A DNA stretch of 46,959 nucleotides, taken from the NCBI GenBank assembly GCA_024103495.1, contig JAGFIQ010000056.1, forward strand, positions 1-46,959, in the 5' to 3' direction. This document shows positions 4,737-35,031 of this stretch, piece after piece. The notes beneath the pieces are model-generated. The model was not told the origin of the DNA. It did no database searches and was given only the letters and a program-made list of their open reading frames with translations. This stretch comes from Aridibacter famidurans (GTDB taxonomy: Bacteria > Acidobacteriota > Blastocatellia > Pyrinomonadales > Pyrinomonadaceae). Both the position numbers and the translations under genes were made by a program. Numbering within the stretch: the first letter of the stretch is position 1; every line of letters starts with the position of its first letter.

Positions 4737-4848
4737 AAAAGTAATTCGATATCAAGACAGAATACAAGTTTTGGGCGCAGATGGTACGTGATTTCTGATC
4801 CCTGACACCTGCTTGCTGCTCACAGCTCACCGCTAACCGATTACTGAA

Positions 4849-5130
4849 ATGAAGGCAATCTGGAACGGAAAAACTATCGCCGAGAGCGACGACACGGTGG
4901 TCGTCGAGAACAATCACTATTTTCCCGCCGATTCGATTAAGGAGGAATACTTCAAGCCGAGCGACACGAACACGGTCTGCGGCTGGAAGGGTACGGCGAG
5001 CTACTACACCCTGGATGTCGATGGCGAGACAAATCCGGACGCGGCGTGGTACTACCCCAACCCGCTGCCGGAAGCCGAGAGCATTCGCGGCCGGATCGCG
5101 TTCTGGAAAGGGGTGGAAATACAGGAGTGA
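4849..5130 (+). CDS. DUF427 domain protein
   Basis: 93 residues. The sequence matches the DUF427 pattern well: MKAIWNGKTIAESDDTVVVENNHYFP at the start, the central CGWKGTASYY, and the closing YYPNPLPEAESIRGRIAFWKGVEI. The length is usual for the family. DUF427 proteins are small cytoplasmic beta-rich proteins of unknown biochemical role, common beside general metabolic genes. No signal peptide or membrane segment is seen. The gene lies between two stretches of degenerate repeat words and has no close operon partner; mutS2 begins 146 bp downstream. Confidence 0.9.
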   Translation: MKAIWNGKTIAESDDTVVVENNHYFPADSIKEEYFKPSDTNTVCGWKGTASYYTLDVDGETNPDAAWYYPNPLPEAESIRGRIAFWKGVEIQE

Positions 5131-5276
5131 TTAGTACTGAGTGCTGAGTACTGAGGAAGGATTTCTCGAAACAGGCAGAGGACGAAAGACGTTTGCACAG
5201 CAGATTCCTGATTCCTGATCCCTGATCCCTGACCTTCTTACCTGCTCACCGCTCACTGCTTACTGCTCACAGTCAA

Positions 5277-7646
5277 ATGTTTGACACCGAATCCCTACAA
5301 CTCGAGAAGCTTCTCGATCTAGTGGCAACCGGCGCGCAGACGCCTATGGGCCGCGGACGGATCCTGAACCTCGCTCCGCGCGAAAGCAGGCACGAACTCG
5401 ATCGCGAGCTCGATCTTCTTCGCGAGGCGATCGGACTGCGCTCCGACGACGTCCGGTGGCGGTTTTCCGGGATCAAGGACATATCCGATTTCCTGAAGCG
5501 CCTTCGCATCGAGGACACTCTTCTCGAGCCGATGCAGCTCCGTGACATCGCCGCGCTGATGAGACAGGCCGTCGAAGTGCGTTCCATTATCGGCGAACAC
5601 CAGGAAGAAGCTCCCGAGCTTTGGTCGGCCGCGCTTCAGATCAATCCGGGTCTTTCTTCCGTAGCCTCGGACATCACGAAGAAGATCCTGCCGAACGGCG
5701 AGATCGACGACGCGGCGTCGCCCGAACTTCAGAGGATCCGACGCGAGATCACCGCGAAGCGCGCCAGCCTCACCAGCACGCTCGAAAGCCTTATGCGGAG
5801 CCGCGAGGAAGCGGTCCAGGACGACATCGTAACGGTTCGCAACGACCGGTTCGTGATTCCCGTCAAGGCCGATTTCAAGGGCAAGATAAGCGGCGTCGCG
5901 CACGGTTCTTCTTCGTCCGGAGCCACGGTCTTCGTCGAGCCGCTCGAGGCGATCGAGGCGAATAACGAACTGCAGTCGCTGAAAGCGCGCGAAGAGCAGG
6001 AAATACTGCGCATCTTGTTCGAGCTCGCCGAAGCCCTCCGCGAGCGTTTGACGTTGATCCAACTTGCCGTTGAAGCCGTCGCCGAGCTCGACTCGCTCAA
6101 CGCCAAGGCCGATTTCGCGAAGCGTTTCGACGCGGTAGTGCCTTCAATCAGCGACGAGGGCGATCTGACCCTTAAGGACGCCCGCCACCCTCTTCTTGAG
6201 GAGAGCCTCCGCGATTCGGATCGCGAAGTCGTTCCTGTCTGCGTGTCTTTGTCCGGCGAGAACGCCGTGATGATCATCTCCGGCGCGAACGCGGGTGGAA
6301 AGACCGTCGTTCTGAAGACCGCCGGACTGCTTGCGATGATGGCGCTTTCGGGGCTTCCGGTCCCCGCTGATTCGGCGTCGGTTCCCTTCTATTCGTCGAT
6401 CGCGGCGGACATAGGCGACCGGCAGTCGATAGCCGCGAATCTTTCTACATTTTCTTCGCACATCTCCAACATCGCCGAGATGATCGAGAATGCCGAGTGG
6501 CCGGCGCTTGTTCTGCTCGACGAGGTCGGGACCGGCACCGATCCCGAGGAAGGATCGGCGCTCGGAGTCGCTATCGTCGATCATTTCAGAAGGCACGGCG
6601 CTCACGTGATCGCCTCGACACATTACAAGGGCCTGAAGATATACGCGGCGAACGACGAGGCGATAATCAACGCCTCGGTCGAGTTCGACGAAAAGACCCT
6701 GGAGCCTACATACAGGCTGCTGACGGGGATCGCGGGCGCTTCTTCGGGGCTCGAGATGGCGAGGCGCTTCGGGATCCGCGACGAGATCGTCGAACGGGCT
6801 CGCGAGAGCCTTAAAGAGGCGTCGCGCGAAGCGGAAAGCTATCTCCACAAGCTTCAGGTGGAGACAAAGCAGGCGGAAGACCTTCGAAAGGCGCTCGAGG
6901 AAGAGCGCGAGGCGGTCGCCGAAAGATACGCGGGCCTCGACGTCGAGTTCCACCAGAAGGAACAGCAGAGGCGCAAGGAGTTCGACCAGAAGGTTTCCGA
7001 GGTCGTGCGCGATTTCGAGAAGCGCTCGAAGGAATTCCTGAAGTCGATCAAGGAAAAGCAGACGAAGAAGAAGGCGGAGAAGGAGATCGCCGCACGGTCT
7101 TCGGAACTGAAACGAAAGGCCGCGGCGGTTTCGGGTCGCGAGCCTTCATCGGGAACGGAGAGTCCGGAAGTCGAGGAGATCGAGAAGCCGATCGAGGAAG
7201 GCTCGAGCGTGCTTCTGAAGCGGTTCGGCACGGTCGGAAAGGTCGAGAAGATCATAGGCGACGAAGCGGAAGTTTCGGTCGGGTCGATGCGTATGCGCCA
7301 GGAACTCGCGGACCTTCAGGCGGTGGCGGCTGAAAAGTCATTCAAGGCGCCGCGCGACAAAGGAGCAGGGGCGGCAGTGGACGAAACCGCATCGAGAGAG
7401 GTCGCCCGCGAGCTTAACCTGATCGGGAGAACGACGCTCGACGCCGAAGTGGACGTCGACCGGTTCCTCGACGAATCGTACATGGCTCGTCTGGACAAGG
7501 TGAGGATCATCCACGGCTTCGGAACGGGAGCGTTGAAGAATGCTGTCCACCAGATCCTGAAGGGCCATCCGCACGTGGAAAGCTTCGGCTTCGCGCCTCA
7601 GAACGAGGGCGGCAACGGCGCAACGGTGGTGGAGCTTAGGAAGTAG
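5277..7646 (+). CDS. mutS2: Endonuclease MutS2
   Basis: 789 residues, the usual MutS2 length. After the MutS core and clamp regions, the ATPase shows Walker A GANAGGKT (336-343), the STFSSHISN motif (about 390-398) and Walker B LVLLDEVGTGTDPEE (411-425). A long charged coiled coil follows (about 500-630). The C-terminal Smr nuclease domain (about 715-789) contains VRIIHGFGTGALKNAV. The mismatch-recognition N-terminal domain of MutS is absent, as is normal for MutS2. Family members suppress homologous recombination or act on collided ribosomes; which applies here is unknown. The Smr start reads LNLIGRTTLDAE, whereas LDLRG is more usual. No clear Shine-Dalgarno sequence precedes the ATG. Confidence 0.97.
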   Translation: MFDTESLQLEKLLDLVATGAQTPMGRGRILNLAPRESRHELDRELDLLREAIGLRSDDVRWRFSGIKDISDFLKRLRIEDTLLEPMQLRDIAALMRQAVEVRSIIGEHQEEAPELWSAALQINPGLSSVASDITKKILPNGEIDDAASPELQRIRREITAKRASLTSTLESLMRSREEAVQDDIVTVRNDRFVIPVKADFKGKISGVAHGSSSSGATVFVEPLEAIEANNELQSLKAREEQEILRILFELAEALRERLTLIQLAVEAVAELDSLNAKADFAKRFDAVVPSISDEGDLTLKDARHPLLEESLRDSDREVVPVCVSLSGENAVMIISGANAGGKTVVLKTAGLLAMMALSGLPVPADSASVPFYSSIAADIGDRQSIAANLSTFSSHISNIAEMIENAEWPALVLLDEVGTGTDPEEGSALGVAIVDHFRRHGAHVIASTHYKGLKIYAANDEAIINASVEFDEKTLEPTYRLLTGIAGASSGLEMARRFGIRDEIVERARESLKEASREAESYLHKLQVETKQAEDLRKALEEEREAVAERYAGLDVEFHQKEQQRRKEFDQKVSEVVRDFEKRSKEFLKSIKEKQTKKKAEKEIAARSSELKRKAAAVSGREPSSGTESPEVEEIEKPIEEGSSVLLKRFGTVGKVEKIIGDEAEVSVGSMRMRQELADLQAVAAEKSFKAPRDKGAGAAVDETASREVARELNLIGRTTLDAEVDVDRFLDESYMARLDKVRIIHGFGTGALKNAVHQILKGHPHVESFGFAPQNEGGNGATVVELRK

Positions 7647-8117
7647 ATTCTCTGTAGGGGCGGGGCTTGTCCCCGCCCGAGGTACGATAGGCTTCAGCCT
7701 GTCGCTGTCCGACGAGCTTCAGCTTGTCGGGGTGTGAACCGCCGAGGCGCTGAGGCACAGAGAACTTTAGGCGCGTGGCGAACGCGTCAGAGTTCAAGCT
7801 TCGGCTTGCGTGGTACGATAGGCTTCAGCCTGTCGAAGATCAACCGCGGAATCGCTGAGGCGCAGAGAATTTTGGGCGCGTGGCGAACGCGTCAGAGTTC
7901 AAGCTTCATCTTGGCCCTTTTCGCGAAGGATTCAGCCACGGATTTCACGGATTGCACGGATAACAGAAGGCACAAGGTCTGGATCGTGCCGAAGAAGGCG
8001 GATTAGAATCTTCGCGCCTCTGCGGTGAGAGTTGGCCACGAATTTCACGAATTTCACGAAACGAAATTGGCCACGCTGTTCGTTGAGAATTAGCCGCGGA
8101 TTTCACGGAATGTTCGG
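7647..8117. repeat. Gene-free repeat region: GC hairpin, tandem 105-bp units and degenerate 'CACGGATTTCACGGATT' words
   Basis: Directly after mutS2 there is a GC-rich hairpin (GGGCGGGG at 7658-7665 with CCCCGCCC at 7671-7678). A unit then repeats with a 105-bp offset: the 33-nt stretches at 7770-7802 and 7875-7907 are identical. Small palindromes such as AGGCTTCAGCCT occur at about 7690 and 7817. From 7930 the region carries several copies of a word close to CACGGATTTCACGGATT, a family that recurs at 41 and 43.5 kb. It also contains a copy of the 3' end of the next gene (see 7979-8049). Confidence 0.85.
7979..8049 (+). repeat. 71-bp direct repeat, left copy (duplicated 3' end of the downstream gene)
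   Basis: This stretch matches 8786-8856 at 70 of 71 positions. In the right copy the first 28 bp are the last codons (WIVPKKAD and stop) of the exported protein gene at 8118-8813. The left copy therefore looks like the tail of a lost tandem paralogue, or a duplication scar. The right copy lies partly inside that gene. Confidence 0.9.
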
Positions 8118-8813
8118 ATGAGGAAAACAATTACAGCGCTGATACTTGGCCTATTGCTCGTGGCGAACCCAATACTGGCGCAGGAGAAAACCGAGGCGTT
8201 CCTGGTAGATGAGTTTGGGCCGATTGCCTGTGGCGACGGCATGGCGAGGATCGATTTGTTCTTCACCTACATCCAGAATAATGAAGAATCCACCGGGCTC
8301 GTGATCATTCGTTCTCCAAAGGACAATTTCAGGTATCCGCTTAGTATCGAGTCATTGCTCTATGGAGAGATCGAGTTTCACAAGGATGACGACAAGCTGG
8401 ACATCGATTTGTCCGACCTGAAAGTCATTCGGATTGAGGACGCGGAACGCACTGAAACTTCGTACTGGATCGTCCCAAAAGGCGCTTCCCTGCCCGAAGA
8501 AGCGTCGGACACTCCCCATTTCTCGCTTGAACTTCCCGACGGCACAAAACCGTTCAAATTTTTAACCAACGACTATAGTGGTCCCTGCAACTGGGGAGGA
8601 ACGAACATTCATTTTCAGGAGATGCTCAACGCAAACCCGCTTGCGACAGGAAATCTCGTGATCGCGGACGAGAATCAGAAGGCATTTCAAGAGAAGAAAG
8701 GAGAGTTATTGTCGGCTTTGTCGGGGATCGACCCCGCCCGGCTGAGGTTCTTCTTCGTTAAGAGCAAAATCCCCTACGTCGAATACTGGATCGTGCCGAA
8801 GAAGGCGGATTAG
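8118..8813 (+). CDS. Exported protein of unknown function
   Basis: 231 residues. It has a signal peptide (MRKTITALILGLLLVANPILAQ, cleavage near residue 22), so it is exported. No known domain was recognised. The mature part starts KTEAFLVDEFGPIACGD and is rich in acidic residues. The phrase YWIVPK occurs twice, at about residue 115 and at the C-terminus (EYWIVPKKAD). This could mean two related halves: a segment on each side contains a DLxxxR or PARLRFFFVKS-like stretch before it. Two cysteines (in PIACGD and GPCNWGG) could form a disulfide. The gene stands alone between repeat-filled spaces, and its 3' end is duplicated 807 bp upstream. Confidence 0.75.
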   Translation: MRKTITALILGLLLVANPILAQEKTEAFLVDEFGPIACGDGMARIDLFFTYIQNNEESTGLVIIRSPKDNFRYPLSIESLLYGEIEFHKDDDKLDIDLSDLKVIRIEDAERTETSYWIVPKGASLPEEASDTPHFSLELPDGTKPFKFLTNDYSGPCNWGGTNIHFQEMLNANPLATGNLVIADENQKAFQEKKGELLSALSGIDPARLRFFFVKSKIPYVEYWIVPKKAD

Positions 8814-8856
8814 AATCTCCGCGCCTCTGCGGTGAGAGTTGGCCACGAATTTCACG
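8786..8856 (+). repeat. 71-bp direct repeat, right copy
   Basis: It is identical to 7979-8049 except for one base. It covers the last codons and stop of the exported protein gene and runs 43 bp into the following intergenic space. The rest of that space (to 9071) contains CATTGGTCAATGATCAATG-type words similar to those at 41270-41350. Confidence 0.9.
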
Positions 8857-9071
8857 GATTACACGAAAAGACATTGGTCATTGGCCAATGATCAGTGACC
8901 AATGTCTGGGCCGGTCACTACCGTTCCCGGTACTGATTTCATTGCACAAGGCTCATTGGTCAATGATCAATGGGCATTGATCGATGCTCTTCGATTTACG
9001 ATTCACGCCCCTCCGATTTACAATCCTTCCTTCACCTTTTACTTTTTACTTTCCACTTTTGACTTGAAAGC

Positions 9072-10928
9072 GTGCGCATCCCCGACTATTTCATCGACGA
9101 CCTCAAGACCCGCGCGGACATAGTCGGCATAATCGGCACCCACGTACAGCTCAAGAAGAAAGGCTCCAGCTGGATGGCCTGCTGCCCGTTCCATCAGGAA
9201 AAGACCCCCTCATTTTCGGTAAATCCTTCAAAAGGCTTCTACCATTGCTTCGGCTGCGAGAAGTCCGGGACCGTCTATAACTTCCTTATGGAGATAGAGG
9301 GCCTTTCGTTTCCCGAAGCCGTCCGGAAGGTCGCCGAGATCTCCGGCGTGCCGCTCCCGGAACTGATCGACGACGGCAATTTCGCGAAGCAAAAAGAGAA
9401 ACGCGACGCCGAGAAGAAACTCGCCGCGAAGGTCGTCGAGCTGAACAGGATCGCGATGGAGCTCTGGGAGGAGAATCTCCGTGCCGACAATCCGCAGTCG
9501 AATGCCGCACGCGAGTATCTCGCTTCGAGAGAGATCGACGAGGAGACGATCCGCCGGTTCCACATAGGTTTCGCCGAGGACAGCTGGGACCGCCTGCTTA
9601 ACTTACTGAAAGAAAAGGGGTTCGAGGAGAAGCTGATCCGCGAGAGCGGGCTTGTTTCGATCAACGAAGAGAAGAACCGTATCTACGACCGGTTCCGGGG
9701 CAGGATCATCTTCCCTGTCCTCGACCTGAACGGCGATCCGATCGCGTTCGGGGCACGAATTCTGGGAAAGGGCGAGCCGAAATACCTCAACTCCCCCGAG
9801 ACCCCCGCGTACGTGAAAGGCGACCACCTTTACGGCCTTTTCCAGAACCGCGACGAGATACGGCGTTTGAAATACGCGATCCTTGTTGAGGGCTACCTGG
9901 ACCTTATCGCTCTATACCGTTTCGGAGTGAAAAACTGCGTCGCGAGCCTCGGAACGGCGTTTACTTCACACCAGGCAAAACTTCTCGGCAGGTTTGCACG
10001 TAAGGTTGCGGTTAACTATGATGGAGACAGCGCGGGAATAAAGGCGGCGAGACGGGCGATAGAGACGCTTTTGGCTGCGGATTTCGAGATAAAAGTATTG
10101 GTTCTGCCGGGCGGGAACGACCCGGACGATTTTATCCGCTCCGAAGGCTTTGAAGCATATAAAGATCAGCATAAGAACCACGCCTTACCCTACCTACAAT
10201 TTGTTTTAGAGAACAGCGTACGGGAACGTAACCTTGCTTCCGCCAGGCAAAAAGCCGAGGCGATAGAGGATGTTGTGCCCGTGCTTGTTGCTGTTCGGAA
10301 TCCGATACAGAAGCGCGAATCGTTCGATCAGGCGATGAATTTTTTGCGCGTGGATGACGCGCTCTTAAAGAACGATCTTTGGAAAACGGTAAAGGCCGGA
10401 AGCGGATTCGAGGCCGAGACGGTCCGGAGGCAGGTCGTCCGTTCGGTCCAGGCGAAAGTAACGGTTGCGGAACAGCGATTCCTCGAACTCGTGGTACACG
10501 ACGAGGAGCTTAGAAAGCAGGTGCTGCCGCATCTCGAACCTACGGACCACGAAGAACTGGCGACGGCGCCGATCTTCGAGGCCCTGATCGAGCTGGACAA
10601 GACGGGACGCGAAGTTTCGATCGAATCGATACTTGAGCTTATCGGCGATCATCCGGTCTCTGGAGATCTGGTCCCTTTGATCTGGATGGCCGAGCCCGCA
10701 AGAGCGGAAGGCGAATGGATCGAAGAGGTCCTCGCGGAAGCCGAGAACTGCATCGCTTCGCTCAGAACGATGGCGATCGACGCGAGGATCCTTGAGATCA
10801 GCCACGAACTGGCGACGGCGGAACAAAGATCGAGGCAGGACGAGATCAACCGGCTTGTCGAGGAGCAGATCGAGCTCGCGCGTATGAAGAGAAAGCTGCA
10901 GGATCAGCTTTCGGACAGCGGCGGCTGA
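9072..10928 (+). CDS. dnaG: DNA primase DnaG
   Basis: 618 residues, GTG start. The CHC2 zinc finger is complete (C38, H41, C59, C62 in CPFHQEKTPSF...YHCFGC). The primase core follows (RFHIGFAEDSWDRLL, YDRFRGRIIFPVLDLNG). The TOPRIM catalytic residues are E273 in LVEGYLDLIAL and the DGDSAG acidic motif at 317-322. The C-terminal third (about 430-618) is the poorly conserved helicase-binding region and here is helical and acidic. The enzyme makes RNA primers for replication. rpoD follows 82 bp downstream in the same direction, the classical dnaG-rpoD arrangement of the macromolecular synthesis operon without rpsU. Confidence 0.97.
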   Translation: MRIPDYFIDDLKTRADIVGIIGTHVQLKKKGSSWMACCPFHQEKTPSFSVNPSKGFYHCFGCEKSGTVYNFLMEIEGLSFPEAVRKVAEISGVPLPELIDDGNFAKQKEKRDAEKKLAAKVVELNRIAMELWEENLRADNPQSNAAREYLASREIDEETIRRFHIGFAEDSWDRLLNLLKEKGFEEKLIRESGLVSINEEKNRIYDRFRGRIIFPVLDLNGDPIAFGARILGKGEPKYLNSPETPAYVKGDHLYGLFQNRDEIRRLKYAILVEGYLDLIALYRFGVKNCVASLGTAFTSHQAKLLGRFARKVAVNYDGDSAGIKAARRAIETLLAADFEIKVLVLPGGNDPDDFIRSEGFEAYKDQHKNHALPYLQFVLENSVRERNLASARQKAEAIEDVVPVLVAVRNPIQKRESFDQAMNFLRVDDALLKNDLWKTVKAGSGFEAETVRRQVVRSVQAKVTVAEQRFLELVVHDEELRKQVLPHLEPTDHEELATAPIFEALIELDKTGREVSIESILELIGDHPVSGDLVPLIWMAEPARAEGEWIEEVLAEAENCIASLRTMAIDARILEISHELATAEQRSRQDEINRLVEEQIELARMKRKLQDQLSDSGG

Positions 10929-11010
10929 AACCCCATAGGGCGATCGGGCGTGAAAGATATAATAACCAACGTTTTCGGGTGCAAGGCAATCGAATTCGAT
11001 TTTTAAGAAT

Positions 11011-12744
<1,734 letters not shown>

Positions 12745-22369: not shown

Positions 22370-22903
22370 ATGTTAACAAAGACCTTCTTGATAATCATTT
22401 CCGCCGTGCTTTTCCTGAATTTCTCGGGCTGTGGTTCGGAAGAACCACCCGATGCAGTGAACACGGCGGACAACGGATCGAATTCGGCGCCGTCGCCGGC
22501 CGCAGCGAACGACGATCCGCTGGGCGGTATCGAGAAGACTCCCACGCCTGCGGAGAAAGTGGAAGCTGTCACGCTGAAGCCGGTTGTGGCGGCTTACTGT
22601 GACGCGATGCGCAAGAGGGACGAGGCAGGGTTGAGGAAGGTCTATTCGGCAGCTACGATCCGAAGCTTTGAGGCGAGCATGCGTGAAGAAGGCGTCTCCT
22701 CCCTTGCGGAGTATCTTTCGACCGAGCCGGTCGGGGAAAAGTGCGATGTCGTCAACGAACGCATCCAGGGCAATCTTGGCGAAGCGCTCGTGACTACGGA
22801 AACCTATCCGAACGGGATAATGATCAAGTTCGTGAAGGAAGGCGGGGAATGGAAGATGACGAACCAAAGCTCCGACTTCGATGCGGTGAGGAGAGACTCG
22901 TGA
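22370..22903 (+). CDS. Lipoprotein with NTF2-like (DUF4878-like) domain
   Basis: 177 residues from the ATG at 22370, which has AGGAG 9 nt upstream. The N-terminus MLTKTFLIIISAVLFLNFSGCGSEE is a lipoprotein signal with lipobox FSGC, so the protein is anchored to the membrane. A Pro/Ser/Ala-rich linker runs to about residue 70. The C-terminal domain (KPVVAAYCDAMRKRDEAGLRKVYS, then GEALVTTETYPNGIMIKFVKEGGEWKM) has the alpha-beta order of NTF2/SnoaL-like domains of the DUF4878 kind. Function unknown. A 9-bp tandem repeat array starts five bases after the stop codon. Confidence 0.78.
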   Translation: MLTKTFLIIISAVLFLNFSGCGSEEPPDAVNTADNGSNSAPSPAAANDDPLGGIEKTPTPAEKVEAVTLKPVVAAYCDAMRKRDEAGLRKVYSAATIRSFEASMREEGVSSLAEYLSTEPVGEKCDVVNERIQGNLGEALVTTETYPNGIMIKFVKEGGEWKMTNQSSDFDAVRRDS

Positions 22904-22908
22904 GTCAT

Positions 22909-23070
22909 TCGGGTCTGGCGGGTCTGTTGAGTCTATCGGGTCTGTCGAGTCTGTCGAGTCTGGCGAGTCTGGCGAGTCTGGCGAGTCTGTTGAGTCTGGC
23001 GAGTCTGGCGAGTCTGGCGAGTCTATCGGGTCTGTTTAGTCGATCAGGTCTGTCGGGTACGTAGAGCCTG
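22909..23070. repeat. Imperfect 9-bp tandem array (about 18 units, consensus GCGAGTCTG)
   Basis: About 18 consecutive 9-bp units vary mainly at the first and fourth bases (GCG/TCG/TTG, then AGT or GGT, then CTG or CTA). It lies immediately after the lipoprotein gene. One frame of the plus strand stays open and would read as a Ser-Leu-Ala repeat, but it has no start or context of its own. Confidence 0.92.
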
Positions 23071-27277: not shown

Positions 27278-28075
27278 ATGAATTTCAAACTCGCCGAAGA
27301 CGTCAAACCGCAGGTCAAGCTTCTGATCCTGGCGACGATTATCAGTGTCGTGATCTGGCTCGCCTCGTTCTATTTCCCGATCCTCGGGTACATCGTTTAC
27401 CCGCTTCAGCTGTTCGCAACCTTCGTCCACGAGGGCAGCCACGTGCTCGCCACGGTGATGACAGGCGGATCGGTGCAGAGCCTGACTGTCTCGCCGGACA
27501 CGAGCGGTGTTGTGTGGTCGCTCACACAAGACGGGAACTGGGTCCAGAGGCTGATCATCTCCAGCGCGGGTTATCTTGGCACGACCGCTTTCGGCGTCGC
27601 GCTTCTCGCGTGGTTCCGGTATGACTTCTCATCCAGAAGAGCGCTATATTTCGCCTCGGGTTTTGTCGGCCTAATGACGGTGCTTTTCGGGCTCCTGGCT
27701 CCGGTCTGGAACATCTTCAACTCGAAGGTCGGGATCGCGAGCGTCGCTTTCACGGTGCTTTCGGGAGCAGCGTTGTCGGCAGGCCTGTTCGCGATCGCGC
27801 GGTATGCGCAGATCAAGTGGGCCAATTTCGCGCTCGCGTTCCTGGCGGTACAGTGCCTTTTGAATGCGATCTTCTCGCTGAAGACGCTGTTCATCATTTC
27901 GGCGACGTCCAACTCGCATTCCGACGCGATGAACATGGCCGAGGCGAGCGGGATCCCCGCGGTCGCCTGGGTCCTGATTTGGATCGTGGGCTCGGTGCTG
28001 ATGATCTCCATCGGACTCCGGCTCTACGCGGTTTCAGCAAAGGCAAAGCAGAGCGAACTGCCGTTTGAAGACTGA
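27278..28075 (+). CDS. M50B-like integral membrane metalloprotease
   Basis: 265 residues. At least five hydrophobic helices are visible (about 13-31, 34-52, 88-110, 122-150, 160-180, 225-250). The zinc motif is H51-E52-G-S-H55 in FATFVHEGSHVLATVMTGG, at the end of the second helix, as in M50B-like peptidases. NSKVGIASVAFTVLSG and the later region do not show a clear third metal ligand (the usual LDG or NxxPxxPLDG), so proteolytic activity is probable but not certain. The stop overlaps the start of a small gene (TGATG). A role in regulated intramembrane proteolysis would be inference only. Confidence 0.82.
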   Translation: MNFKLAEDVKPQVKLLILATIISVVIWLASFYFPILGYIVYPLQLFATFVHEGSHVLATVMTGGSVQSLTVSPDTSGVVWSLTQDGNWVQRLIISSAGYLGTTAFGVALLAWFRYDFSSRRALYFASGFVGLMTVLFGLLAPVWNIFNSKVGIASVAFTVLSGAALSAGLFAIARYAQIKWANFALAFLAVQCLLNAIFSLKTLFIISATSNSHSDAMNMAEASGIPAVAWVLIWIVGSVLMISIGLRLYAVSAKAKQSELPFED

Positions 28076-28410
28076 TGGCATTCGCAAACTTCATCGACTG
28101 GAGGCCGGACGGAACGCCGTTCGGCCTTTATTATTCGTCGGGGCAGGTCTCCGGGCCGAAAATGCTCGGGGAATTGATCGTCGGATCGAAACTTCTTTAT
28201 CGCTCCAAGACGGACTGGCGGGAGGCCGTCGTCTCACGAAGGACGGCCTCGAAGGCGATGCTGACGGTCTGCTCGCCGAAAGGATACACTTACCGTCTAA
28301 GCCGCTCGCTTTGGTCCGAGATCGTGCTGAGCGGGAACATACCCGTCCTCAGGTCTGTAGAGAGTGAGGATTGGCGGGAGAATCTGGCGACTTATGACCA
28401 AAGATGGTGA
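28075..28410 (+). CDS. Small protein of unknown function, coupled to the M50-like gene
   Basis: 111 residues. The start overlaps the stop of the M50-like gene, indicating translational coupling. The sequence is soluble, basic and aromatic-rich (FIDWRPDGTPFGLYYSSGQVSG, GYTYRLSRSLWSEIVLSG). No signal peptide, cysteine or known domain is seen. The gene ends 18 bp before the end of the convergent PqqD-domain gene. It may be a partner or regulator of the membrane protein, but nothing in the sequence shows this. Confidence 0.65.
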   Translation: MAFANFIDWRPDGTPFGLYYSSGQVSGPKMLGELIVGSKLLYRSKTDWREAVVSRRTASKAMLTVCSPKGYTYRLSRSLWSEIVLSGNIPVLRSVESEDWRENLATYDQRW

Positions 28411-28428: not shown

Positions 28429-28956
28429 CTATACCACGCAATCTCCGTCCGTATTGCCGTTGTTTCTCCATACGCAACGGCAGATCGGATTCGCACATGG
28501 AACTGCCTCAACGCATTCTTGCCCCATCATTCCAGTCATCGTACACATGCATCCATTCGAGACAGGTATGCAGGCTGACTGAGCCGCCACGGCAGATGGC
28601 GCGGTTATCGCCGTGACGATCGGAAGAGCCGCCATCGATGTCAGCCCAACCTTCTTTATTATCTCTCGTCTGGTCAAGCCGTCAAAGATACCCGAGTTAG
28701 TTGATTCCTTAAGAAGGCTTTCTCCCGAAAGCTGCTCCAGAGCAAGCTCGACAAAGGCTGTAGTCACATCGTTTCCAAACTCCGCCGAAGCCAGCGAAAC
28801 GATGTCCGCGACAGAGTTCGCGCCGTTACAATGCTTCCAGACAAACGAGCTTGTCTTGTTAAGACACATTGCCCGATTCGAGAGCAGATCGTAGACAAAC
28901 GTCTCATCCCCGATCACCTGAACCACGAGGTCGTTCTTTCTATGAATTGGAAACAT
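28429..28956 (-). CDS. PqqD/RRE-like domain with internal Tat signal and 8-Cys C-terminal tail (paralogue A)
   Basis: 175 residues in three parts. Residues 1-90 form a PqqD-like winged helix (DLVVQVIGDETFVYDLLSNRAMCLNKTSSFVW...). Residues 95-125 are an internal Tat-type signal (TRREIIKK, hydrophobic GLTSMAALPIVTAITA, AVAA cleavage site). The mature tail of about 50 residues has eight cysteines (129, 136, 138, 148, 154, 159, 161, 173) and ends with ICRCVW and GDCVV. PqqD domains bind leader peptides of ribosomally made, modified peptides; here leader-binding domain and possible core peptide are one chain. The gene has its own promoter and belongs to the set DUF1223, methyltransferase and paralogue B upstream. 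Export of the tail is inferred. Confidence 0.82.
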   Translation of the reverse strand: MFPIHRKNDLVVQVIGDETFVYDLLSNRAMCLNKTSSFVWKHCNGANSVADIVSLASAEFGNDVTTAFVELALEQLSGESLLKESTNSGIFDGLTRREIIKKVGLTSMAALPIVTAITAPSAVAAQSACIPVSNGCMCTMTGMMGQECVEAVPCANPICRCVWRNNGNTDGDCVV

Positions 28957-28984
28957 AGGATCGTAAAGCGGGAGGGTTTGAATA

Positions 28985-29013
28985 CTTATATCGCCTTGCT
29001 AAAATCAAGTCAA
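28985..29013 (-). promoter_or_regulatory. Sigma-70 promoter of paralogue A
   Basis: TTGACT (29008-29013), a 17-nt spacer and TATAAG (28985-28990) on the minus strand, about 30 bp before the ATG. It lies in the space after the methyltransferase gene. Confidence 0.75.
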
Positions 29014-29066
29014 TCCGGCAGAAGGCAATAGTTCAAGTAACACATTAGGTTCTGGACTGGAGCAGT

Positions 29067-30218
29067 TCAGCCGCGGCAGTATCTCTCGACAAGCATATAG
29101 ACCCTCTCCACCGCTTTCTCAGCAGAAGAGAAAGCGTCCGGGAATCGTGCCAATACCTCATCCGCGATATCCCCGCTCAGGTTTTCGCCGTCCATCCTTG
29201 AGAGAATGAACGCGTCGATCTCTCCCTGGCGACCCAGCGCCGGTTCGAAGAATTCCGATCTCCTCAATGCGCTCTTGGGATCCGGAATGATCGAGGCGAT
29301 CAGCGACTGAGCAAACTCCGCCTTTACTTCTCCGGCGTTTCCGGTGACCTTCGTCTGCCAGCTCCACAAGTATCCGCCATCCTCGTATACCGCGTTGATC
29401 CTTGCACTGATCACATCCCCCGCCGATACGTCCACAGGGTCTTCGAGAGGAAAGAACGGCGAGGCATATGTGGAGGCCTTTACCAAAATGCCGTTTGAGA
29501 CCGAATAGCCTCCGGGAAGGCGGCTTTCGAACCAGGCCCGGTAGCCGTGAGCCGTTCCGGCTTCCTCGACATTCCATTCAAGATCGCGAGCGAATGAAGT
29601 GTCCGAGTTCACTCGGTGGTCGAGCTGGGCGAACTTCGCCGGCCGGGTGAGGAGGCGTTCGTCATCGCTTCGCGAACTGAACCAGCGGTTCTTCACGATG
29701 CGTTCGGCGGCAGGAAGACTGAAGCCCCCGTATTCACGCAGAAAAACCGAAACGTTCTTCTCATAGATCTCCTCGGATTCCGATACTGCGAAGAATATGG
29801 TTTCCGATTCCGGGAGCATTGCGGCATCTTCCGTGAGAAGCCGTTCGCGGGCATCGATTATTGACTCAAGACCCGACTCGTGAAGCGGAAGACCGCCGTG
29901 GATGTCGCTCACGAGAAGATTCGCCCGTTCCGGCAGCTCGATCTCCGAAGAGAGTTTCTGGATCACGACCAGCCGGTCACCGAAGCCCTGCCCCCTGGCA
30001 GTCTCTTCAACAAGCCTAATCAACGGATTGACCTCAACCGCATAGACTTTCTTTGCGCCAAGATGGCAGGCCATCACGGAGAACACCCCGGTACCGGCCC
30101 CCAGGTCTAGAACGATCGTGTCGGGGCCGACCGTATTGCGCAGCGCGCCGGAATATGCATCTAGCCGAGCCTTGTCGGTGAGCATCCCGCAGTAACTGAC
30201 GAAGTCATAGAGGTGCAT
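29067..30218 (-). CDS. PRMT-fold methyltransferase with C-terminal RRE/PqqD-like winged helix
   Basis: 383 residues. The start YDFVSYCGMLTDKARLDAYSGAL and motif I VLDLGAGTGVFSVMA (36-50) with acidic E62 (AVEVN) match protein arginine methyltransferases. At the double-E loop it reads SDIHGGLPLHESGLESIIDARERLL, so the first glutamate is an aspartate and the second is kept. A beta-barrel-like part follows. Residues of about 318-383 (EIDAFILSRMDGENLSGDI, ARFPDAFSSAEKAVERVYMLVERY) resemble the second half of PqqD-type domains. It may methylate a partner bound by this domain, such as the neighbouring Cys-rich proteins. It lies 21 bp after the DUF1223 gene, probably in one operon. Confidence 0.8.
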   Translation of the reverse strand: MHLYDFVSYCGMLTDKARLDAYSGALRNTVGPDTIVLDLGAGTGVFSVMACHLGAKKVYAVEVNPLIRLVEETARGQGFGDRLVVIQKLSSEIELPERANLLVSDIHGGLPLHESGLESIIDARERLLTEDAAMLPESETIFFAVSESEEIYEKNVSVFLREYGGFSLPAAERIVKNRWFSSRSDDERLLTRPAKFAQLDHRVNSDTSFARDLEWNVEEAGTAHGYRAWFESRLPGGYSVSNGILVKASTYASPFFPLEDPVDVSAGDVISARINAVYEDGGYLWSWQTKVTGNAGEVKAEFAQSLIASIIPDPKSALRRSEFFEPALGRQGEIDAFILSRMDGENLSGDIADEVLARFPDAFSSAEKAVERVYMLVERYCRG

Positions 30219-30239
30219 CGAAGAGATAACAACCGGGGG

Positions 30240-31040
30240 TCATTGAGAGACGGATAGGGATTGAGAGGCTGCAGCAACGATCTTTCTGGTGTGGTTCTCT
30301 TGCACAAACACGACTGCCTTCAATTTCTCCCGGTTCCAGTCCGCGCCTATGTTCAGGGCAGCTTCCATTTCGAACTCAATCTGCCCGGGCTCGATCCTGC
30401 CGATCCCATTCAGTGACCGCACCACCGCCACATGGCCAAGCGTCTTACCGGCGTTTTCGCCTCCCCTAACGCTAGAAGTAAGCCCGTCTTCGGCATAGGC
30501 CAGGTAGACCGTAGCGTAATCGGTGTCGGGAAGCGCGCGGACACGGATCTCGATCTTGCTGCCCGCGACACTCAATTCAACCTGTCCCTTATCCCGCTTA
30601 AGCGATCTCTTTATCGCACTTTCGGCTTTATCGAGCTTCGAGCCTATGAACTCGATATCGCCGTCGACGACCCTCTGAGGTGTGTAAATGTTGCCAGTGC
30701 GGAACTTGCGATCATAGACCTGTTGTCGCTGTGTGAACAGCGGTGACGCGAAAGGATCTTTCCAGCCGGGAACGTCCCTGTAATCTACGTGAAATGCCAG
30801 AGTGATGATTTCCGCACCCGAGTACGGTTGTTCCTTTTGAAGATAGGCAAGATTCTGTTCCGCAGGCGGGCAGCTGGCACAGCTCTCGGAAGTGAATAAT
30901 TCGACGAGAACAGGGCGAACTGTCTTCGACCCGGAGCCCTCCGGAACGCTCGCAGGAACATGTGAATCATCAGCCGCGGCGCTCTGCAAGGATACCGCGG
31001 AAAATACTGCGAGAATGAGCGAGAAAAGCAGACCTTTCAC
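30240..31040 (-). CDS. DUF1223 secreted thioredoxin-fold protein
   Basis: 266 residues. A signal peptide (1-22, ending SAAAD) directs it to the periplasm. The DUF1223 signature VLVELFTSESCASCPPAEQNL carries a CxxC pair (C54, C57). The sequence continues with typical ITLAFHVDYRDVPGWKDPFASPLFTQRQQVYDRKF and TPQRVVDGDIEFIGS. The C-terminal half is beta-rich (VELSVAGSKIEIRVRAL). The biochemical role of the family is unknown. The fold and CxxC suggest thiol-disulfide exchange. Its place between two genes for secreted 8-Cys tails makes a role in their oxidation plausible (inference). Confidence 0.9.
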   Translation of the reverse strand: MKGLLFSLILAVFSAVSLQSAAADDSHVPASVPEGSGSKTVRPVLVELFTSESCASCPPAEQNLAYLQKEQPYSGAEIITLAFHVDYRDVPGWKDPFASPLFTQRQQVYDRKFRTGNIYTPQRVVDGDIEFIGSKLDKAESAIKRSLKRDKGQVELSVAGSKIEIRVRALPDTDYATVYLAYAEDGLTSSVRGGENAGKTLGHVAVVRSLNGIGRIEPGQIEFEMEAALNIGADWNREKLKAVVFVQENHTRKIVAAASQSLSVSQ

Positions 31041-31115
31041 ACAGGCATTATATAGAAACCTTATCGACTTGTTCCAAACCGGTTGGATACCGGGACAATG
31101 CGATTACATGTGGCG

Positions 31116-31661
31116 TCACGGAACGCAATTGCCGAGAAAACTGATTCCGGAGTTACCGATCCAGACGCAGCGGCAGGCGGCGTTGTCGCACTGGGCCCAC
31201 GAAAAGGGAGTGCACTGCTGCCCCTGCCGGCCATTCGACGCTTGGTTACACGTACAGCCGAAGTTCTCCGGCACACAAGTCGACTGCGCGGCCACAGCCG
31301 GAGGCGCGATGATCGATGACACGATCGGAATGGCGACCATCGTCGCGATGCCGATCCTTCTGACCGCTTCCCGCCGGCTCATTGACCCGAGAAACCGCTC
31401 GCTTTCAACGGATTCGAGCAGGCCGACTTCTGCAAGATCCTCGAGCGCAAGTAGTACAGCCTCGGCAGGCACCGGTTCGAGGAAACGCTTGGAAAGGGAT
31501 TCGGCCAGATCTTCTACCGATCTTGTTCCGTCGCAGAGATTCCAGACGGCTGCCGCGGTTTCATTCAAACTGATCGCACGGTGGGAGTTCAGGTCGTACA
31601 CAAGCAATTCGCGGTCGACCTCCTGAACGACCAGGTCATTCTGTCTGTGGACTGGATACAT
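31116..31661 (-). CDS. PqqD/RRE-like domain with internal Tat signal and 8-Cys C-terminal tail (paralogue B)
   Basis: 181 residues from the ATG at 31661, set by alignment to paralogue A; the open frame extends to 31700. The PqqD-like part is residues 1-92 (NDLVVQEVDRELLVYDLNSHRAISLNETAAAVW). SRREAVRRIGI (95-105) with a hydrophobic stretch and AVAAQS (122-127) forms an internal Tat signal. The tail of about 55 residues has eight cysteines (129, 136, 138, 150, 158, 163, 165, 179). The first three positions and the ACRCVW...NCV ending match paralogue A. GGAGG lies 14 nt upstream. It is probably the first gene of the minus-strand unit, 75 bp before DUF1223. Confidence 0.83.
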   Translation of the reverse strand: MYPVHRQNDLVVQEVDRELLVYDLNSHRAISLNETAAAVWNLCDGTRSVEDLAESLSKRFLEPVPAEAVLLALEDLAEVGLLESVESERFLGSMSRREAVRRIGIATMVAIPIVSSIIAPPAVAAQSTCVPENFGCTCNQASNGRQGQQCTPFSWAQCDNAACRCVWIGNSGISFLGNCVP

Positions 31662-34737: not shown

Positions 34738-35031
34738 GTTGCGGCTTTGCCGCCGTGATGTGCGGTATGCCTCCGGCTTACCGGGGGCAGGCGAATTATC
34801 TATTGCGCGGAGGCTCAGCCTCCGCGCAATAAACAAAAAAGGGCGCCTTTCCGGAAAGGCAAGCCTTTCCGCACATCACGGCGGCACAGCCGCAACACAG
34901 CATCAGAGCTACACCCCCGGAAAGGCAAGCCTTTCCGCACATCACGGCGGCACAGCCGCAACACAGCATCAGAGCTACACCCCCGGAAAGGCAAGCCTTT
35001 CCGCACATCACTGCGGCAGAGCCGCTTTTCA
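34738..35031. repeat. 66-bp tandem array of palindromes with an inverted half-unit
   Basis: Three units with an exact 66-bp spacing (AAGCCTTTCC begins at 34861, 34927 and 34993) are made of the palindromes GGAAAGGCAAGCCTTTCC and GCGGCACAGCCGC. At 34738-34765 the same sequence occurs in inverted orientation (GTTGCGGCTTTGCCGCCGTG). GCGCGGAGGCTCAGCCTCCGCGC (about 34804-34826) is a further hairpin. Together they could fold into a long cruciform or hairpin between uvrA and the convergent bioA. No gene is seen in 34711-35042. Confidence 0.88.

What the first reader, a model, noticed from the sequence alone, without database searches (positions are those of the whole stretch)
28429..31661. Possible new peptide system: two PqqD(RRE)-Tat-8Cys fusion proteins around a DUF1223 protein and a PRMT-like methyltransferase
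Seen: the paralogues at 28429-28956 and 31116-31661 share an N-terminal PqqD-like domain. Both have an internal twin-arginine motif at exactly residues 95-97, an AVAAQS cleavage-like site at 122-127, and a 50-55-residue tail with eight cysteines at largely matching positions. Known: PqqD-type domains (RRE) bind leader peptides of ribosomally made, modified peptides, normally as separate proteins or fused to enzymes. Inference: here the recognition domain is fused in cis to an export signal and a Cys-rich product. The two genes between them could supply modification and oxidative folding. Tat transport would mean the tail folds, or binds a cofactor, before export. No radical SAM or YcaO partner is nearby, which sets this apart from common RiPP loci.
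Basis: partly seen in the sequence, partly recalled or inferred. Interest (0 to 1): 0.85.

Follow-up and report, generated by a model that had tools for sequence, protein, structure and literature searches.

The report
Peptide precursors with built-in docking domain
Many bacteria of the phylum Acidobacteriota carry genes, at least 40 in one genome, that join a domain of the kind that recruits peptide-modifying enzymes to a predicted Tat export signal and a variable tail whose cysteines almost always come in even numbers, so they are likely precursors of secreted, disulfide-bonded peptides that a co-occurring kinase would modify.

Summary
An RRE/PqqD-type domain, a near-invariant twin-arginine signal with an AxA-type site, and a hypervariable Cys-rich tail form one chain. 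97 of 162 class genomes match; two genomes have 38 and 44 matches, of which 34 and 40 were checked in full. From the twin arginine on, 185 of 189 Cys-containing chains have an even number of Cys, and 93 of 93 in a further set: what full disulfide pairing would leave. [quoted passage not shown] The consistent partner is not DUF1223 or the methyltransferase but an HprK-related kinase that co-occurs with the family (91 both, 6 and 6 single, 59 neither), often beside an NTP_transf_5 enzyme: a pair known to phosphorylate and glycosylate lasso peptides (PMC9266682), here without lasso cyclase or B2 protease. Best reading: a new RiPP-like class whose recognition element is part of the precursor. Modification, docking, export and cleavage are inferred. 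The PRMT-like methyltransferase is a plausible local tailoring enzyme; DUF1223 is probably a resident neighbour.

The parts
31116..31661 (-). Gene B: RRE-Tat-Cys precursor, 181 aa
   Evidence: ORF; PqqD 47.1 bits; family profile hit
31413..31661 (-). Gene B residues 1-83: RRE/PqqD-like domain
   Evidence: AlphaFold order E10-15 E18-23 E28-32 H34-42 H49-60 H66-78, block pLDDT 93-97 over residues 1-80; best PDB matches are lasso RREs
31371..31379 (-). Gene B residues 95-97, S-R-R twin-arginine motif
31287..31370 (-). Gene B residues 98-125: hydrophobic stretch and AxA-type cleavage region
   Evidence: a [AVSTIL]xA site lies 20-42 residues after RR in 191 of 191 family proteins tested
31119..31286 (-). 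Gene B residues 126-181: predicted core with 8 Cys
28429..28956 (-). Gene A: RRE-Tat-Cys precursor, 175 aa
   Evidence: ORF; PqqD 31.9 bits
28708..28956 (-). Gene A residues 1-83: RRE/PqqD-like domain
   Evidence: fold inferred from gene B's model
28666..28674 (-). Gene A residues 95-97, T-R-R twin-arginine motif
28582..28665 (-). Gene A residues 98-125: hydrophobic stretch and AxA-type cleavage region
28432..28581 (-). Gene A residues 126-175: predicted core with 8 Cys
29067..30218 (-). PRMT-like SAM methyltransferase, candidate tailoring enzyme of this locus
   Evidence: best PDB matches PRMT2/PRMT6, E from 3.7e-28; homologues 36-37% identical in lasso-type clusters
30240..31040 (-). DUF1223 thioredoxin-fold protein; possible thiol-disulfide helper, more likely a resident neighbour
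   Evidence: PF06764 182.6 bits; thioredoxin fold per PMC3091736 passages; keeps its place without the family in G005
28075..28410 (+). Uncharacterised protein of about 110 aa; relatives within 3 kb at 7 of 120 family loci; syntenic, role unknown

Best explanation
The two genes are likely precursors of secreted, disulfide-rich modified peptides in which an RRE/PqqD-type domain (predicted to dock enzymes), a predicted Tat export signal and the Cys-rich would-be product are one chain. Proposed steps: (1) in the cytoplasm the RRE domain would dock tailoring enzymes onto its own tail. The general enzymes would be an HprK-related kinase, acting on a Ser/Thr close to the first Cys, and an NTP_transf_5 enzyme that would extend the phosphate. 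Local additions would be the PRMT-like methyltransferase here and 2-oxoglutarate oxygenases next to other subfamilies. (2) The twin-arginine motif would hand the modified, perhaps folded chain to Tat, leaving the RRE domain on the cytoplasmic side. (3) Signal peptidase would cut at the AxA-type site, and the Cys of the released core would pair completely into disulfides, perhaps with help from a thioredoxin-fold protein such as DUF1223. Shown here: the architecture, the RRE fold (by prediction), Cys parity, hypervariability, and kinase co-occurrence and linkage. Inferred: docking in cis, the modifications, Tat transport, cleavage and product function.
For: Family matches in 97 of 162 class genomes (a few can be stand-alone PqqD hits) and 489 proteins at E<=1e-12 in the protein database. 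RR in 195 of 196 aligned rows that reach it and 93 of 93 held-out; the context S/T-R-R-E-x-x-R/K resembles SRRxFLK (PMC7317946, passages); a [AVSTIL]xA site in 191 of 191; TatC in the genome. Even Cys in 185 of 189, 136 of 140 after redundancy reduction, 93 of 93 held-out; leader Cys as a control are odd in 59 of 191. RRE fold, closest to lasso B1 proteins with bound leader. Kinase profile: 91 both, 6 family only, 6 kinase only, 59 neither in 162 genomes, p = 5e-30; by genus 30/2/0/21, counted by hand. One detected kinase gene in each of the genomes with 38, 44 and 14 family matches. Kinase or NTP_transf_5 within 3 kb at 38 of 52 loci outside those three genomes. 27 of 31 kinases at family loci match a loose pattern of the H / P-loop / acidic catalytic motif. 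Known precedent: PadeK, PsmK/PsmN (PMC9266682, passages), and RRE protein BsfB1 accelerating kinase BsfK (PMC10368454, passages). Ser/Thr within 3 residues before the first Cys in 156 of 186, against 737 of 1458 (51%) before later Cys.
Against: No biochemistry; no product mass. 0 of 68 loci in the three expanded genomes have a kinase or NTP_transf_5 gene within 3 kb (all hits fall in the other 52), so the link there rests on co-occurrence alone; 14 of the other 52 loci have neither. A WecA-like gene (named by eye) lies within two genes at 7 loci and further sugar-type genes precede the cassette at loci I read, so the kinase could act on a surface polysaccharide system. Tat signals are normally at the N-terminus; here a folded domain precedes it. 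The tail of the model has block pLDDT 40-55. Two of 191 tails have no Cys. The co-occurrence is partly linkage, and genomes are not independent. The methyltransferase acidic loop differs from canonical PRMTs and is not kept in the lasso-type homologues.
Confidence: 0.62

Rival explanations
1. Exported disulfide-rich peptides without enzymatic modification: the RRE-like domain would be a cytoplasmic holding or chaperone domain for the signal or the reduced tail, and the kinase and nucleotidyltransferase would serve a neighbouring polysaccharide or regulatory system.
For: Cys parity alone needs only disulfides. Sugar-type genes lie near the cassette. The 68 loci of the expanded genomes have no kinase or NTP_transf_5 within 3 kb.
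Against: Kinase and family co-occur even where unlinked, e.g. G001, G005, G032, where the stretches fetched around the kinase hold no family gene. The same enzyme pair modifies lasso peptides (PMC9266682, passages). Three further enzyme types (PRMT-like methyltransferase and two 2OG-oxygenase-like families) are locally linked.
Confidence: 0.2
2. Membrane-anchored sensor or regulator: the hydrophobic stretch is an uncleaved anchor, the Cys tail is a periplasmic or surface domain, and the winged-helix RRE-like domain is the cytoplasmic output, controlled by the HprK-related kinase.
For: The RRE fold is a winged helix, and regulators appear lower in the fold list. Polysaccharide-type gene context.
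Against: Near-invariant RR and an AxA-type site are not needed by an anchor. Hypervariable tails and 34-40 checked paralogues per genome fit products rather than sensors. The top fold matches are peptide-binding RREs.
Confidence: 0.1
3. One reading: DUF1223 and the methyltransferase as the dedicated machinery of this class.
For: Tight same-strand order in the window. DUF1223 within 3 kb at 6 and the methyltransferase or a relative at 5 of 120 loci.
Against: No genome-level co-occurrence. All six DUF1223 loci lie beside UvrA, which points to one ancestral locus, and G005 keeps DUF1223 there without the family. The tail of the G001 gene fragment beside the methyltransferase has no Arg, against a conserved Arg target.
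Confidence: 0.08

Closest known systems
NHLP and Nif11 (N11P) long-leader RiPP precursor families (Haft et al. 2010, PMC2887384, passages)
   Same: Long conserved leader homologous to a protein of another function, hypervariable core, large paralogous families, modification genes often unlinked.
   Different: The leader is an RRE/PqqD-type domain, the cut is a predicted AxA-type site after a twin-arginine signal instead of Gly-Gly, and the Cys are even in number as for disulfides rather than for azole or lanthionine chemistry.
Phosphorylated/glycosylated lasso peptides: paeninodin, pseudomycoidin, bsf (PMC9266682, PMC10368454, passages)
   Same: RRE plus HprK-like kinase plus nucleotidyltransferase; the window methyltransferase has relatives in lasso-type clusters.
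   Different: RRE is fused to the substrate; no lasso cyclase or B2 protease found in the fetched stretch of any of 120 family loci; core is Cys-rich and predicted to leave by Tat.
RRE domains as catalogued by RRE-Finder and its 2025 update (PMC7470986, PMC12710340, search listing and passages)
   [quoted passage not shown] PqqD-like.
   Different: There RREs are stand-alone or fused to enzymes or other domains; the passages I saw do not describe RREs fused to the precursor.
Knottins / inhibitor-cystine-knot peptides (recalled)
   Same: 89 of 191 tails match a C..C..CC..C..C spacing, shuffled mean 22, maximum 33 of 200 shuffles.
   Different: Fold not predicted with confidence; many tails have other spacings and up to 34 Cys.

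Membership tests
[quoted passage not shown]
   AlphaFold model of gene B; lasso RREs first
RRE domain | binds a leader or core peptide | not testable with these tools
   needs binding assay
RiPP precursor | conserved leader region with variable core | tested here: met
   leader identity 0.43/0.46 against tail 0.36/0.34 (0.28/0.26 once shared Cys are set aside) in G001/G032; the contrast is moderate
RiPP precursor | associated modifying enzymes of a type known from RiPPs | tested here: met
   HprK-related kinase and NTP_transf_5
RiPP precursor | core is post-translationally modified and released | not testable with these tools
   needs mass spectrometry
NHLP/Nif11 precursors | leader homologous to nitrile hydratase alpha or Nif11 | tested here: not met
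   only PqqD is above cut-off in Pfam for the three proteins of this genome
Lasso peptides | lasso cyclase and B2 protease in the cluster | tested here: not met
   none found in the fetched stretches (3.2-47 kb, median 10.5 kb) of 120 family loci
Tat substrate | twin arginines, hydrophobic region, AxA-type site | tested here: met
Tat substrate | signal at the N-terminus | tested here: not met
   RR at residues 96-97; median position 104 in 46 database members
Tat substrate | TatC-dependent export | not testable with these tools
   TatC gene present
PQQ biosynthesis PqqD (TIGR03859) | score over curated cut-off | tested here: not met
   18.8 and 27.8 bits against 46
HPr-rel-A system (TIGR04352/TIGR04353) | scores over curated cut-offs | tested here: not met
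   14 against 35 for gene B; 51.1 against 200 for the L083 kinase
Protein arginine methyltransferase | PRMT fold with double-Glu loop | tested here: inconclusive
   sequence match to PRMT2/6; loop reads SDIHG..HES, first Glu replaced by Asp (the canonical loop is recalled)

The most novel reading that the evidence does not exclude
A new RiPP-like class that turns the usual logic round: the recognition element is part of the precursor, not of the enzyme. One kinase (with its nucleotidyltransferase) would serve a library of some 40 hypervariable, disulfide-knotted cores per genome, which are then exported by Tat from an internal signal: a bacterial counterpart, in architecture, of animal venom-peptide libraries.
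Probability: 0.5. Interest if true: 0.92.

Novelty: new variant of a known kind. Interest (0 to 1): 0.8.

Why it matters
If true, it adds a RiPP-like class whose precursors carry their own recognition domain, gives a genome-mining handle (RRE + internal twin-arginine + even-Cys tail) that searches for short precursor ORFs could miss because the genes are annotated as PqqD family or hypothetical proteins, and offers a natural library of disulfide-rich peptides from Acidobacteriota, seen here mainly in MAGs (20 of the 21 named loci). It makes two open questions testable: whether an RRE can act in cis, and whether Tat accepts a signal behind a folded domain.

Tried and rejected
Tried without use: the genome-contig scan with one protein found nothing; the aligned-group scan gave 21 named loci. 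PF14907 alone is too widespread (57 of 60 genomes) for a profile test. The protein of about 411 aa beside three loci (L041, L116, L118) has no Pfam or PDB sequence match, but its model matches 2OG-Fe(II) oxygenases; its profile does not match the precursor family. Promoter and terminator scan: near the shuffled expectation.

Rejected: stand-alone PQQ PqqD; lasso precursor; chance architecture; metal-binding clusters as sole reason for the Cys, because counts of 6, 10, 14, 18, 22 and 34 are not multiples of four (inference); Arg in the tail as a conserved methylation target.

Rows dropped: of 201 distinct family proteins 10 were dropped before the parity and signal counts because they are fragments, split frames or stand-alone PqqD hits, or failed my filter for RR plus hydrophobic stretch; 2 of the remaining 191 have no Cys. 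The 4 odd ones are L085, L094, L154 and P0022. Before the neighbour count 13 loci that repeat others were dropped. Weak hits in the genome surveys can be stand-alone PqqD: 32 of 297 phylum genomes is an over-count, as several hits have E above 1e-18 and partial coverage; the own-genome count of 4 includes one stand-alone protein (C115). One search scored at most 21 candidates a genome, so its copy counts for G001 and G032 are capped; 38 and 44 come and include partial matches. The held-out set is the listed, best-scoring part of 489 and leans to 6- and 8-Cys tails. The kinase profile (A5) was built from kinases beside the family, which favours finding linked ones. Polysaccharide, UvrA, moaC and WecA-like names of neighbours are my reading of sequences; M50B rests for the window.

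A fifth methyltransferase homologue at 36% identity (G039, L113) lies at a contig end and shows no lasso-type gene on the 9.3 kb held. In L111 the B2 model is over its cut-off (79.9 against 33), but the cyclase (371 against 525) and PqqD (46 against 80) models are not; L110 has the same three genes, L112 and L114 show only the cyclase-, kinase- and NTP_transf_5-type genes.

Prior art: ten paper searches in an open-licence library listed no description that I recognised of a PqqD/RRE domain fused to a precursor; subscription papers were not searched. I saw passages only of PMC9266682, PMC7470986, PMC12710340, PMC10368454, PMC2887384, PMC7317946 and PMC3091736, and the outline with abstract of PMC12455567 (not used as evidence).
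Full report
What is there. The two genes are on the minus strand, 28429-28956 and 31116-31661, with a methyltransferase and a DUF1223 gene between them on the same strand, gaps 75, 21 and 110 bases. Both proteins have a PqqD domain over the Pfam cut-off, [TS]RR at 95-97, AVAAQS at 122-127 and 8 tail Cys.

It is a family. The first protein search gave 47 proteins including the query itself; a profile search gave 489 at E<=1e-12, 120 of them listed. Of 60 related genomes (own included) 35 have a match, with 38 matches in G001 (same genus), 44 in G032 and 14 in G005, scattered and in tandem. In the loci I fetched, 34, 40 and 9 of these have the twin arginine, the hydrophobic stretch and at least 4 Cys behind it. 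In the whole class 97 of 162 genomes match. The 21 named loci are mostly Pyrinomonadaceae and other Acidobacteria MAGs (five from the MAG of G001), with one each from Gemmatimonadetes, Deltaproteobacteria and the planctomycete Aquisphaera insulae, the last with a short tail of one Cys. In the phylum sample 12 of the 32 matching genomes are outside the class, five of them with E<=1e-38.

Cys parity. Counting from the twin arginine to the end, 185 of 189 Cys-containing proteins have an even number (4 odd: two with one Cys, one with 3, one with 9). After redundancy reduction it is 136 of 140 (on cut tails, some odd cases there being cutting artefacts). In 93 database proteins not used before, 93 of 93. 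As a control, leader Cys are odd in 59 of 191. This is what complete disulfide pairing would leave. 89 of 191 tails fit a knottin-like spacing against a shuffled mean of 22.

The partner. At 120 distinct family loci I looked for recurring neighbours. An HprK-related kinase lies within 3 kb at 28 and NTP_transf_5 at 30, both at 20; 38 of the 52 loci outside the three expanded genomes have one or both, several in the order kinase, precursor, nucleotidyltransferase (e.g. L082, L175, L176, L184). None of the 68 loci in the expanded genomes has either. Yet at genome level the kinase follows the family: 33 both, 2 family only, 1 kinase only, 24 neither in 60 genomes; 91, 6, 6, 59 in 162; by genus 30, 2, 0, 21 (counted by hand). 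Genomes with 38, 44 and 14 matches have one detected kinase gene each, with NTP_transf_5 next to it in G032 and G005 but no family gene in the stretch fetched. As controls, the window's methyltransferase and DUF1223 show no such relation (p = 0.27 and 0.12). 27 of 31 kinases at family loci match a loose H / P-loop / acidic pattern, close to the motif reported for lasso kinases (PMC10368454, passages). The family kinases and four of lasso-type loci align by profile with probability 97.8%.

Why this suggests modification. In lasso clusters the PadeK and PsmK kinases phosphorylate the precursor, and PsmN is needed for added hexoses (PMC9266682, passages); BsfK does so on Ser3 of the core, and the RRE protein BsfB1 accelerates it (PMC10368454, passages). 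Here the same three components occur, with the RRE fused to the substrate and no lasso cyclase or protease found at any family locus. A Ser/Thr lies within three residues before the first Cys in 156 of 186 tails, against 737 of 1458 (51%) before later Cys: a candidate site, unproven; it also overlaps the cleavage region.

The window locus. Eleven tails of its type, the window's two included, have eight Cys each. The loci I hold for them share parts of one gene order (UvrA, DUF1223, small protein, M50B peptidase, moaC). The enzymes there differ: PRMT-like methyltransferase plus DUF1223 in the window, G002 and G001; kinase in L083; kinases, DUF1223 and an oxygenase-like protein in L116; kinase and a distantly related methyltransferase in L188. 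In G001 the family gene beside the methyltransferase is only an 82-residue open frame that begins at the twin arginine, so it may be broken; left as found. The methyltransferase is closest to PRMT2/6 among solved proteins by sequence, but its acidic loop differs, and homologues 36-37% identical in G020, G021, G045 and G057 lie in lasso-type clusters (a fifth, in G039, shows none on the stretch held). DUF1223 is a thioredoxin-fold family (PMC3091736, passages) and might help folding, but G005 keeps it at the locus without family gene or methyltransferase.

Other additions. In G001 one subfamily has a 2OG-Fe(II) oxygenase gene 0-41 bases away at four loci, six genes. A second protein without Pfam match lies beside the family at three loci; its model (pLDDT 92) matches 2OG oxygenases including prolyl hydroxylases.

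Own genome. On contig C125 this genome has the cassette NTP_transf_5, kinase, third precursor, kinase, and about 46 kb away a lasso-type cluster. TatC is present.

Verdict. New variant of a known kind: long-leader RiPP-like precursors with the recognition element as leader, predicted Tat export and disulfide-rich cores. Not shown: modification, docking in cis, transport, cleavage, activity.

Noticed in passing
L190 (G000:C125), about 4844-11975: Own genome has a lasso-type cluster (RRE, B2, cyclase, HprK-like kinase, ABC transporter, NTP_transf_5 by profile) on the same contig as the third precursor.
   Followed up: partly
L116:3372-4604, also L041 and L118: Uncharacterised protein of about 411 aa with 78 database matches, no Pfam match, invariant H-x-D and H-x-R, predicted 2OG-Fe(II) oxygenase fold, beside family genes in three genomes.
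   Followed up: partly
window 28075-28410: Uncharacterised protein of about 110 aa on the plus strand, facing the operon; relatives within 3 kb at 7 of 120 family loci and also at the G005 locus without the family.
   Followed up: no
L110:1022-2584: A radical SAM-type gene next to a short gene that looks PqqD-like by eye, a few kb from the lasso-type genes in G021.
   Followed up: no
window 34851-35025: Tandem repeat of 66 bases, 2.7 copies at 98%, just downstream of UvrA.
   Followed up: no
window 22902-23035: Imperfect 27-base / 9-base tandem repeat array inside an ORF that reads as a Leu-Ser-rich stretch.
   Followed up: no
L061:5011-5577 and P0033: Family members whose tails have no Cys but are rich in Pro, or in Pro, Thr and Met: the core type can change completely.
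   Followed up: no
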